Shown: piece after piece, positions 13,566-16,157 of the stretch
Position numbering within the stretch: position 1 is the first letter of the stretch
Layout: each line of letters opens with the position of its first letter
Program-made: the position numbers and the translations under genes
Notes under the pieces: generated by a model
Seen by the model: the letters and a program-made list of their open reading frames with translations, nothing else
Told to the model about the DNA's origin: nothing
Databases searched by the model: none
DNA from: Hyphomicrobiales bacterium
GTDB taxonomy: Bacteria; Pseudomonadota; Alphaproteobacteria; Rhizobiales; Rhizobiaceae
Length of the DNA: 64,000 nt
Direction of reading: 5' to 3'
Assembly (NCBI GenBank): GCA_900470195.1
Contig: UEIJ01000002.1
Span: 186,001 to 250,000, forward strand

Positions 13566-13591
13566 AGAAAAAAGGCGGTTTACGCCGCCTT
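13566..13591 (-). terminator. Rho-independent terminator behind the ilvD-end copy
   Basis: Minus-strand reading: AAGGCGG / CCGCCTT stem (13585-13591 and 13572-13578) with a six-base loop and a run of T with one C beyond it. It sits directly behind the stop of the ilvD 3'-end copy, as expected for an original ilvD terminator. It now follows the secreted-protein gene 13686-14249. Confidence 0.8.
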
Positions 13592-13602
13592 CAATGTACC
13601 GG

Positions 13603-13670
13603 ATCAATCCGGCAGCTTCCGCACCGCGCCCTTGGTGGCGCTGGTTGCCATGGGGACGAAGACGCTTCAG
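13603..13670 (-). pseudogene. Duplicate remnant of the ilvD 3' end
   Basis: On the minus strand this encodes MATSATKGAVRKLPD followed by TGA, differing from the real IlvD C-terminus MATSAAKGAVRKLPD in one residue. Over the 51 bases at 13603-13653 the DNA matches 14315-14365 with three substitutions; identity then breaks down, with the frame lost around the codons before the Met. It lacks everything upstream. The two copies form a direct repeat flanking the gene at 13686-14249. Confidence 0.85.
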
Positions 13671-13685
13671 TACTAGCCGTTGATC

Positions 13686-14249
13686 TTAATTCTGGATGGA
13701 TGATTTAAGATCCTGCTTCAGCTTCTCAAGCATCGGAGCAGGCATGTTCAATCCCGCGAAATCACAATATTCATCCAGAAGTTCAGGAGATTTTTGTCTG
13801 AACTTAGAGGTGTCGACTTCACCCTCATCATTCACAGCTCCAACCTTATAAAGAAGGTCAGCGGTCGCTTTTACCGAGATACGGCCTAACTTAAAAGCAA
13901 TGACTTCTTGCTGATCTCGAGCCATGATCGCAACCGTATCCAGTTTAAACTCTGAAGGCATGTCAAGCGTGAGGTCCATGGCACTAATTTTGTTGCTCTC
14001 TAGCGCCTCATAATATCGCTTGCCGAGTTCATAAGCCTTTTGCGTAAAACTGGACGACAAAAGGTAAGACGAGGCAGATGGCTTTATTGCAGTTCCCATG
14101 TTCTGGATAAGGATTGCACATTGAAAATTCTTAAGTGATTTTGCGGGAAGTGCCAGATAATCTTGCTTGGTTAATTCCTGGCTCTTTGCCGGTGCAATTG
14201 ACAATAACAATGCAGACATAGATGCGAATAGTGTTGTTCTGAAATTCAT
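13686..14249 (-). CDS. Hypothetical exported protein inside the ilvD-end duplication
   Basis: A 187-residue protein with a clear signal peptide (MNFRTTLFASMSALLLSIAPAKSQ, cleavage expected near residue 23). The mature part is mainly helical and polar, with two cysteines (NFQCAIL and DEYCDFAG) that could form a disulfide. I recognise no family. Its composition is visibly AT-richer than that of ilvD and the ccm genes, suggesting transfer. Only 21 bp separate its ATG from the T run of the ilvD terminator, so its promoter must lie within the terminator or the ilvD 3' end, or it depends on read-through. Confidence 0.7.
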   Translation of the reverse strand: MNFRTTLFASMSALLLSIAPAKSQELTKQDYLALPAKSLKNFQCAILIQNMGTAIKPSASSYLLSSSFTQKAYELGKRYYEALESNKISAMDLTLDMPSEFKLDTVAIMARDQQEVIAFKLGRISVKATADLLYKVGAVNDEGEVDTSKFRQKSPELLDEYCDFAGLNMPAPMLEKLKQDLKSSIQN

Positions 14250-14270
14250 GTTTTCCCAATTCCTACAAAT

Positions 14271-14293
14271 AAAAAGGGCTCCGAAGAGCCCTT
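14271..14293 (-). terminator. Rho-independent terminator of ilvD
   Basis: Minus-strand reading: AAGGGCTC, TTCG loop, GAGCCCTT (14286-14293 and 14274-14281) followed by T's (from 14275 down). A stable UUCG tetraloop hairpin, 22 bases behind the ilvD stop and just upstream of the exported-protein gene. Confidence 0.9.
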
Positions 14294-14315
14294 AGTAAAA
14301 TACTTTCTGCCGAAA

Positions 14316-16157
14316 TCAATCCGGCAGCTTCCGCACCGCACCCTTGGCGGCACTGGTTGCCATGGAGGCATAAGCTTTCAGCGCGGTGGAAACCTTGCGC
14401 TTGCGTTCTTCCGCAGGCTTCCAGCCCTTGGCGTCCTGCTCGGCGCGACGTTCAGCCAGCGTCGCATCGTCAACGGCCAGATGAATCTTGCGGTTCGGAA
14501 TGTCGATATCGATGATATCGCCTTCGCGCACCAGACCGATCGTGCCGCCTTCCGCCGCTTCCGGCGAGACGTGGCCGATCGACAGACCCGAGGAGCCGCC
14601 CGAGAAACGACCGTCGGTGATCAGCGCGCAAGCCTTGCCGAGGCCCTTCGACTTCAGATAGCTGGTCGGATAGAGCATTTCCTGCATGCCGGGGCCGCCG
14701 CGCGGACCTTCATAGCGGATCAGCACAATGTCGCCCGGCTTGATCTTGCCGTTCAAAATGCCGAGCACAGCCGAATCCTGGCTTTCAAAGATGCGGGCAG
14801 GGCCGGAGAATTTCAGGATGGAATCGTCCACGCCCGCCGTCTTCACGATGCAGCCGTCTTCGGCGAGATTGCCGTAAAGCACGGCCAGACCGCCATCCTG
14901 ACTGAATGCATGTTCTTTCGAGCGGATGACGCCTTTTTCGCGGTCGGTATCAACGCTGTCGAAGCGGCGTTCCTGGCTGAAGGCAACCTGCGTCGGCACG
15001 CCGCCGGGAGCAGCCGAATAGAACTTGTGCACCATTTCGCTGTTGGTGCGCGTCACGTCCCAATGATCGAGCGCCTTGCCCAGCGTTTCGCTGTGCACGG
15101 TCGGAACGTCGGTGGTCAGCAGGCCCGCATGATCGAGCTGGCCCAGAATGCCCATGATGCCGCCCGCATGGTGCACGTCTTCCATGTGAACATTGGCAAC
15201 CGCAGGTGCGACCTTGCAGAGCACCGGCACGCGGCGCGACAGGCGGTCGATATCGGCCATGGTGAAGTCGATTTCTGCTTCCTGTGCGGCTGCGAGCAGA
15301 TGCAGGACCGTATTGGTCGAGCCGCCCATGGCGATGTCGAGCGTCATGGCGTTTTCAAAGGCCGGGAAGCTCGCAATCGAGCGCGGCAGCACGCTTTCAT
15401 CGTCCTGCTCGTAATAACGACGGGCGAGATCGACCACCAGATGACCGGCTTCGACGAAAAGCCGCTTGCGGTCGGCATGGGTGGCAAGCGTAGAACCGTT
15501 GCCCGGCAGCGACAGGCCGAGCGCTTCGGTGAGGCAGTTCATCGAGTTCGCGGTGAACATGCCCGAGCACGAACCGCAGGTCGGGCAGGCGGAGCGCTCG
15601 ATGGCCTTGACCTGATCGTCGGTGTAATGATCGTCGGCAGCGGCAACCATCGCATCCACGAGGTCGAGCTTCTTGACCTGATCGTCCCAGACGACCTTGC
15701 CTGCTTCCATCGGTCCGCCGGAGACGAACACGACCGGGATATTGAGGCGGAGTGCCGCCATCAGCATGCCGGGGGTGATCTTGTCGCAGTTGGAAATGCA
15801 GACCATCGCATCGGCGCAATGCGCATTGACCATGTACTCGACAGAGTCGGCGATGAGCTCGCGGGAGGGGAGCGAATAGAGCATGCCGTCATGGCCCATG
15901 GCGATGCCGTCATCGACCGCGATGGTGTTGAATTCCTTCGCCACGCCGCCGGCGCTCTCGATTTCGCGCGCGACGAGCTGGCCGAGGTCCTTCAGGTGAA
16001 CGTGGCCCGGCACGAACTGGGTGAACGAGTTCACCACGGCAATAATCGGCTTGCCGAAATCCTCATCCTTCATGCCGGTGGCGCGCCATAGGCCGCGCGC
16101 GCCGGCCATATTGCGACCGTGGGTGGTTGTACGCGAACGATAAGGAGGCATTTTCAA
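14316..16157 (-). CDS. ilvD: Dihydroxy-acid dehydratase
   Basis: A 613-residue enzyme of branched-chain amino-acid biosynthesis, converting 2,3-dihydroxy-3-methylbutanoate (and the methylpentanoate analogue) to the 2-keto acids in the cytosol. Signatures: SCDKITPGMLMA and CPTCGSCSGMFTANSMNCL (Fe-S cysteines), and ALITDGRFSGGSSGLSIGH near residues 513-531. Full length for the family. Start at 16157 (MKMPPYRS) or two codons later at 16151; both fit. The 3' end is duplicated 0.7 kb downstream. Confidence 0.96.
   Translation of the reverse strand: MKMPPYRSRTTTHGRNMAGARGLWRATGMKDEDFGKPIIAVVNSFTQFVPGHVHLKDLGQLVAREIESAGGVAKEFNTIAVDDGIAMGHDGMLYSLPSRELIADSVEYMVNAHCADAMVCISNCDKITPGMLMAALRLNIPVVFVSGGPMEAGKVVWDDQVKKLDLVDAMVAAADDHYTDDQVKAIERSACPTCGSCSGMFTANSMNCLTEALGLSLPGNGSTLATHADRKRLFVEAGHLVVDLARRYYEQDDESVLPRSIASFPAFENAMTLDIAMGGSTNTVLHLLAAAQEAEIDFTMADIDRLSRRVPVLCKVAPAVANVHMEDVHHAGGIMGILGQLDHAGLLTTDVPTVHSETLGKALDHWDVTRTNSEMVHKFYSAAPGGVPTQVAFSQERRFDSVDTDREKGVIRSKEHAFSQDGGLAVLYGNLAEDGCIVKTAGVDDSILKFSGPARIFESQDSAVLGILNGKIKPGDIVLIRYEGPRGGPGMQEMLYPTSYLKSKGLGKACALITDGRFSGGSSGLSIGHVSPEAAEGGTIGLVREGDIIDIDIPNRKIHLAVDDATLAERRAEQDAKGWKPAEERKRKVSTALKAYASMATSAAKGAVRKLPD

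What the first reader, a model, noticed from the sequence alone, without database searches (positions are those of the whole stretch)
13566..14381. The ilvD 3' end is duplicated around a secreted-protein gene
The last 15 codons of ilvD (14316 side) occur again at 13603-13653 (three substitutions in 51 bp), with stop codon and a following terminator, while the current ilvD has its own separate terminator at 14271-14293. Between the two copies lies only an AT-richer gene for an exported protein of no recognised family. This looks like acquisition of a cargo gene at a gene end with restoration of the interrupted gene, as integrative elements do at tRNA ends, but no integrase is present. It could mark a small mobile cassette or a recombination scar with ilvD as hot spot.
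Basis: partly seen in the sequence, partly recalled or inferred. Interest (0 to 1): 0.72.

Follow-up and report, generated by a model that had tools for sequence, protein, structure and literature searches.

The report
Two gene cassettes stacked beside ilvD
The gap between two housekeeping genes (ilvD and ccmG) is a swap site where related bacteria carry different single genes, and this genome holds two such genes in a row, with scraps of both housekeeping genes at the seam as a record of an imperfect exchange.

Summary
The duplicated ilvD 3' end is real: 47 of 50 bases (13604-13653 against 14316-14365); the best of 2000 shuffles gave 28. Of 35 same-genus genomes searched, 34 were compared (G023 dropped). 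All 34 keep ilvD and ccmG convergent, with 31-64 bp between them in 13, 129-284 bp in 6 and 548 bp or more in 15. These gaps hold eight unrelated ORF families.

The exported-protein gene sits there without orf133 in four species, and a 43% relative in a fifth. Only the window has both: ccmG / orf133 / terminator / ilvD scrap / ccmG scrap / exported-protein gene / terminator / ilvD. So two alleles of one swap site stand in tandem. The seam lies between 13653 and 13665.

Best reading: a minimal-mobile-element-like locus, exchanged through its flanking genes, where one event was homologous on one side and illegitimate on the other. Probably orf133 with its ilvD scrap is the newcomer, and ilvD was never interrupted. 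Known kind, new member.

The parts
12448..13056 (+). ccmG (dsbE-like thiol:disulfide interchange gene; name from recall), one conserved flank of the swap site
   Evidence: Present beside ilvD in 34 of 34 genomes compared. Sliding identity: like the close relatives G008/G013 up to about 13004; the last block, 13005-13052, is closest to G016 and G022 (85 and 81%, others 52-75%).
13094..13495 (-). orf133, first accessory gene (hydrophobic, membrane-type by eye)
   Evidence: Also in this gap in G016 and G022. dS to G016 0.33 against 0.52-1.65 for seven flanking genes. No match in Pfam, NCBIfam, PADLOC, PHROGs.
13571..13592 (-). terminator-like hairpin of the orf133 block
   Evidence: hairpins of the same kind stand next to the ilvD stop in G016 and G022.
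13604..13653 (-). scrap of an ilvD 3' end (last 16 codons plus stop), duplicate
   Evidence: 47 of 50 identical to own ilvD end.
13656..13676 (+). scrap of a ccmG 3' end (about the last six codons; start approximate, firm from 13665), duplicate
   Evidence: Aligns to the ccmG end of exactly the five genomes with the exported-protein gene or its relative, score 26-45 against a shuffle maximum of 23; sequences.
13686..14249 (-). cargo A: gene for an exported 187-aa protein of unknown family
   Evidence: In this gap without orf133 in G009, G002, G012, G006 (82-93% protein identity) and as a 43% relative in G019; confirmed in named records L032-L035.
14274..14293 (-). terminator-like hairpin between ilvD and cargo A
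   Evidence: a near-identical hairpin stands next to ilvD in G009, G002, G012, G006, G019.
14316..16157 (-). ilvD, intact, the other conserved flank

Best explanation
The short interval between the convergent genes ilvD and ccmG is a chromosomal swap site. Different species of the genus carry different single-gene cassettes there, or none, and whole alleles move between cells by homologous recombination in the flanking genes. In the window's lineage the two alleles were joined in tandem. A fragment from an orf133-type chromosome (end of ccmG, orf133, terminator, last 50 bp of ilvD) recombined homologously within ccmG (about 12957-13032). Its other end, inside the donor's ilvD, was joined illegitimately to the resident's ccmG end, perhaps over the few shared bases TGG. 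The resident exported-protein allele was pushed aside instead of being replaced. Shown: the two-allele anatomy, the patchy cassettes, the two scraps. Inferred: the recombination type, the order of arrival (orf133 as newcomer, about 2 to 1) and the vehicle (a gene transfer agent is possible).
For: Orf133-type neighbours: ilvD end / same-kind terminator / orf133 / ccmG in G016 and G022, collinear with window 12997-13653 at 82% and 78%. Cargo-A-type neighbours: ccmG end / cargo A / terminator / ilvD in G009, G002, G012, G006, collinear with the window from 13658-13665 through ilvD at 82-89%, in named species B. oryzae, B. cytisi, B. pituitosa, B. grignonensis. The seam bases match ccmG ends of just those genomes and the 43% relative. 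Eight ORF families in the gap; 16 state changes on a core tree of 34 genomes. Order: the nearest sister, G013, keeps about 56 bp of cargo A's 3' end beside its ccmG (84% to G002 over 116 bp including ccmG), so cargo A was probably resident; ccmG changes from sister-like to orf133-type only in its last block; orf133 is less diverged from G016 at silent sites (0.33) than seven flanking genes (0.52-1.65). The scrap has one base (13636) that no other ilvD end shows, so the event looks recent. Own genome has an RcGTA-type TIM-barrel gene.
Against: The ilvD scrap is no closer to orf133-type ilvD ends (G016 45, G022 41 of 50) than to others (G020, G024, own 47), so it does not name a donor. No imported tract is visible in ilvD. 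Orf133 is not clearly younger than the flanks against G022 (0.62; flanks 0.66-1.55). Cargo A against G002 (dS 0.71) is above all seven flanking genes (0.26-0.52), so it too may have moved. The assumed three-base homology is too short to be evidence. No donor with high identity was found, and only one genome per species was available.
Confidence: 0.8

Rival explanations
1. Reverse order: the orf133 allele was resident and cargo A came in later with a donor ccmG end and a donor ilvD 3' end, recombining homologously in ilvD and illegitimately at the old ilvD end. The anatomy is identical.
For: The seam is symmetric. Cargo A's silent divergence to G002 (0.71) exceeds that of seven flanking genes.
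Against: Needs two arrivals (orf133 first) instead of one. The sister G013 retains a cargo A scar. Orf133 is otherwise known in this gap only in two genomes of the distant clade.
Confidence: 0.3
2. One reading: a small integrative element inserted at the ilvD end and restored the gene, leaving an attachment-site-like repeat.
For: Direct repeat of a gene end around a cargo gene, as at tRNA genes; variable cargo at the site.
Against: Repeat in 1 of 34 genomes; cargo A sits without it elsewhere; a ccmG scrap lies at the seam; cargo gaps hold one gene of no integrase family.
Confidence: 0.05
3. An old double allele in the ancestor of the genus, later reduced to one or the other cassette in each lineage.
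For: Cargo A divergence is roughly like that of the core for G009 and G012.
Against: The scrap still matches at 47 of 50 with one private base, although it should be free of selection. In 34 genomes none but the window's shows a leftover of the ilvD duplication.
Confidence: 0.04
4. Assembly or contamination artefact that joins two alleles.
For: Draft genome of 68 contigs; each block exists alone elsewhere.
Against: The locus lies inside a 254-kb contig of a genome given as 99.99% complete and 0.29% contaminated; both blocks differ from every relative by 11-22%, so no sampled species can have supplied either.
Confidence: 0.03

Closest known systems
Minimal mobile elements (Neisseria; Saunders and Snyder 2002, Snyder 2007, seen only as citations and as the definition quoted in PMC3082526)
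   [quoted passage not shown] no integrase.
   Different: Seen here between species of a soil/opportunist alphaproteobacterial genus, not between strains of a naturally transformable species; the window holds two cassettes at once with the seam preserved.
[quoted passage not shown]
   Same: High turnover between fixed core genes, no recognisable mobile element.
   Different: That study measured recombination in flanking genes; here only two local scars were examined, with one genome per species.
Homology-facilitated illegitimate recombination (PMC3240628 abstract; PMC2884548 section 14)
   Same: One end joined by homology, the other illegitimately; can put a second segment at a variable locus.
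   Different: Inferred here from a fossil seam, not observed; no vehicle or frequency known.
Sequential displacement that leaves orphan immunity genes in Vibrio T6SS loci (PMC5361080, passages read)
   Same: A newcomer is added beside, not instead of, the resident, leaving an array; the authors propose the same recombination type.
   Different: There effector-immunity modules at one end of a T6SS cluster; here unrelated single genes of unknown function between metabolic genes, and both gene-end scraps are visible.

Membership tests
Minimal mobile element | Region bounded by two conserved genes | tested here: met
   ilvD and ccmG adjacent and convergent in 34 of 34 genomes compared; one of the 35 searched (G023, 72% complete) gave no usable match.
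Minimal mobile element | Different whole-gene cassettes in different genomes | tested here: met
   Eight ORF families of 80 aa or more in the gap, each in 1-6 genomes.
Minimal mobile element | Incorporation by homologous recombination in the flanking genes | tested here: inconclusive
   One allele-specific switch near the 3' end of ccmG and homology up to the ilvD side for the G013/G015 cassette; no tract found in ilvD.
Minimal mobile element | No integrase or transposase of its own | tested here: met
   Cargo ORFs have no such Pfam family; one of nine scanned is over a cut-off, DUF4238. The 19 genomes with gaps under 300 bp have no room for one.
Integrative element at a gene end | Direct repeat of the gene end at both sides of the element in most copies | tested here: not met
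   1 of 34 genomes.
Integrative element at a gene end | Integrase gene | tested here: not met
   Between the two copies the only ORF of 60 aa or more is cargo A; no family match.
Homology-facilitated illegitimate recombination | Homologous on one side, non-homologous on the other | tested here: met
   Left side: switch within conserved ccmG. Right side: ilvD scrap joined to ccmG scrap. Read from sequence; the event itself was not observed.
Homology-facilitated illegitimate recombination | Dependence on RecA and uptake of linear DNA | not testable with these tools
   Needs experiments.

The most novel reading that the evidence does not exclude
The ilvD-ccmG junction is an actively favoured entry site (for example a fragile spot at convergent terminators, fed by gene transfer agent particles) where cassettes regularly stack and later collapse, so that tandem alleles like the window's are the normal intermediate of swapping in integrase-free hot spots.
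Probability: 0.1. Interest if true: 0.7.

Novelty: new member of a known kind. Interest (0 to 1): 0.4.

Why it matters
Many bacterial hot spots carry no mobile element, and how their genes come and go is mostly inferred from statistics. Here one seam shows the parts of both alleles and both flanking genes, which dates and orients a single event. The window's sister G013 has a second scar. A set of strains from these species would allow the steps (arrival beside the resident, then loss of one cassette) to be followed directly. The swap site also offers a list of single genes of unknown function that bacteria of this genus keep exchanging.

Tried and rejected
Integrative element with restored target: rejected, see above. 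Mobile source of cargo A: no match among 72,556 plasmid records; no match outside the genus in 297 genomes drawn from the order, the only hit being the window's own; no PHROGs family. Phage records were not searched. Orf133: 3 of 199 genomes of the order, the window's own plus two weak matches at 29% over about 70 residues. Function of cargo A by structure: AlphaFold2 model with three sequences, mean pLDDT 44.9, too poor to use, so no fold search was made; no PDB sequence match. Defence function of cargos: no PADLOC match for seven proteins given; the G013/G015 270-aa family and the G019 relative were not in that call. Length variation alone as a proof of a hot spot: rejected as a measure, since three other gaps in the 20-kb control vary in as many or nearly as many genomes (24 of 33, 29 of 33, 11 of 32, against 15 of 34); the difference lies in the number of unrelated long genes. 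Polarising the event by the ilvD scrap or by a tract in ilvD: no signal. Competence gene comEC is present but also in 10 of 14 control genomes, so it says nothing. Locus outside the genus: in 28 of 59 other-genus genomes whose ccmG locus was held with 1.5 kb on each side (30 loci returned, two of this genus), ilvD was next to ccmG in one, G377.

Full report
Observation. The last 50 bp of ilvD (14316-14365) recur at 13604-13653 with three differences; 2000 shuffles of the gap gave at most 28 matches of 50. Each copy has its own terminator-like hairpin. A whole-genome search with 13400-14500 found only this place in the 5.15-Mb genome.

Comparison. The 1.7-kb stretch around the finding was searched in 35 genomes of the genus, all those held. 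G023 (72% complete, 420 contigs) gave only a 29-bp match and was dropped. In the other 34, fetched, ilvD and ccmG lie next to each other, convergent. Between the stop codons lie 31-64 bp in 13 genomes, 129-284 bp in 6 and 548-1259 bp in 15. The 15 hold eight ORF families of 80 aa or more: cargo A (window, G009, G002, G012, G006, and a 43% relative in G019), orf133 (window, G016, G022), a secreted-type 270-aa protein (G013, and in broken form G015), and five singletons of 223-332 aa (G020, G034, G007, G001, G005). Of the seven non-window cargo proteins scanned only that of G001 reaches a Pfam cut-off (DUF4238). The sister-genus genome G377 has an unrelated 226-aa ORF in the same gap; that it looks like a HAD-type hydrolase is recall, not a search.

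Control. Fourteen conserved ORFs, 13 neighbouring pairs, were compared over about 20 kb in the same 34 genomes. In length alone ilvD-ccmG is not the most variable: 15 of 34 exceed the minimum by 500 bp, against 29 of 33, 24 of 33 and 11 of 32 for three other gaps. Those others vary mainly by presence or absence of one or two widespread genes (in 17-25 genomes). ORFs of 180 aa or more confined to at most six genomes: seven families in ilvD-ccmG, two in the gap 5553/6667 (both in the poor assembly G002), one each in 17383/19157 and 19157/21340. By number of all ORF clusters the gap 19157/21340 ties at eight. So the site is unusual in this neighbourhood for diverse long singletons; a genome-wide ranking was not made. 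On a tree of seven core genes (9374 columns) the states need 16 changes, cargo A five, orf133 three (changes cannot tell gain from loss).

The window's two alleles. The stretch from the ccmG end to 13653 is collinear with G016 and G022 (82% and 78% over about 660 bp), in which it runs ccmG / orf133 / terminator / ilvD. The stretch from 13658-13665 through the end of ilvD is collinear with G009, G002, G012 and G006 (82-89%), in which it runs ccmG end / cargo A / terminator / ilvD. So the ilvD end closes the first block and a ccmG end opens the second. A local alignment of 13654-13700 with the ccmG ends of all 34 genomes scored above 24 in five, just the carriers of cargo A or its relative other than the window (scores 26-45, shuffle maximum 18-23). 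It is firm from 13665 and reaches 13654 in G012, G006 and G019. In the scrap the usual stop codon has become TAC and the next in-frame codon is TAG (sequence). No other genome has a second ilvD end in its gap.

Order of arrival. Three signs favour cargo A as resident. The nearest sister, G013, has 56 bp of cargo A's 3' end beside ccmG, where another cassette now stands; that cassette resembles G015's up to and into ilvD, so G013 has a one-sided scar of its own. The window's ccmG resembles its sisters up to about 13004 and the orf133-type genomes in the last block. Orf133 differs from G016's at silent sites by 0.33, flanking genes by 0.52-1.65. Against: orf133 to G022 is 0.62 with flanks from 0.66; cargo A to G002 is 0.71, above its flanks (0.26-0.52); the ilvD scrap fits G020 and G024 (47 of 50) better than G016 (45) or G022 (41). 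I put the odds at about two to one. The scrap has one base, at 13636, that I see in no ilvD end, so the join looks younger than the split from G008 and G013 (silent divergence 0.19-0.33 over seven flanking genes). This dating is rough.

Mechanism. Exchange through conserved flanks explains whole-cassette differences; PMC5635113 (abstract and passages) describes it for hot spots without mobile elements, and PMC3082526 (passages) quotes the definition of minimal mobile elements. Joining by homology on one side and illegitimately on the other is described in PMC3240628 (abstract) and discussed in PMC2884548 (section 14 and passages); PMC5361080 (passages) proposes it for immunity-gene arrays where the older gene stays beside the newer. 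PMC3240628 also names circularisation with single crossing-over; for a circle the same seam would result, and I cannot tell these apart. The vehicle is open: an RcGTA-type gene with an open frame of 1269 aa is present in the genome, which allows but does not show transfer by gene transfer agents.

Cargo A. It is 187 aa, with a signal-peptide-like start and two cysteines (44 and 162) kept in the four sequences. Weak relatives (29 and 33%) lie elsewhere in G022 and G016, between a gcvT-like gene and an MFS-type transporter (gene names by recall). It was not found in the order sample outside the genus or in plasmids. Both window cargos read in the direction of ilvD, so read-through from ilvD could express them; this was not tested. 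My guess is a periplasmic protein of unknown use. The frame of cargo A is split in the assemblies of G009 and G002, which are 69% and 85% complete.

Literature. Searches for Ochrobactrum with ilvD and hotspot, and for Ochrobactrum with Brucella and minimal mobile elements, returned no paper. Only open-licence papers are held, so this is weak evidence that the site is undescribed.

Verdict. It is an integrase-free swap site of a known kind, with an unusually legible double occupancy.

Noticed in passing
window 9615-9976: About 362 bp between acnA and ccmA that are missing in 10 of 10 relatives looked at while both flanks align; single copy in the own genome.
   Followed up: partly
L042 (G013), beside the ccmG end: A 56-bp remnant of cargo A's 3' end next to ccmG, then another cassette: a second one-sided scar at the same site.
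   Followed up: yes
L108 4926-5546 (+) and L109 4931-5638 (-): Distant relatives of cargo A (29-33%) stand alone between a gcvT-like gene and an MFS-type transporter gene in G022 and G016.
   Followed up: partly
ilvD-ccmG gaps of G008, G011, G024, G028, G030 (L043, L041, L047, L048, L045): Gaps of 129-284 bp made of related repeat-like sequence, with inverted pieces shared between genomes.
   Followed up: no
L112 (G377, sister genus), about 2095-2775: An unrelated 226-aa ORF fills the same ilvD-ccmG gap outside the genus.
   Followed up: no
L068 (G010) ilvD-ccmG gap: The most distant genome of the genus has an empty site whose hairpin is nearly identical to the one beside cargo A.
   Followed up: no
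L036 (G009) and L037 (G002): Cargo A's frame is split at about the same place in both of these lower-quality assemblies.
   Followed up: no
G000:C38:34991-35881 (L140): RcGTA-type TIM-barrel gene in an open frame of 1269 aa.
   Followed up: no
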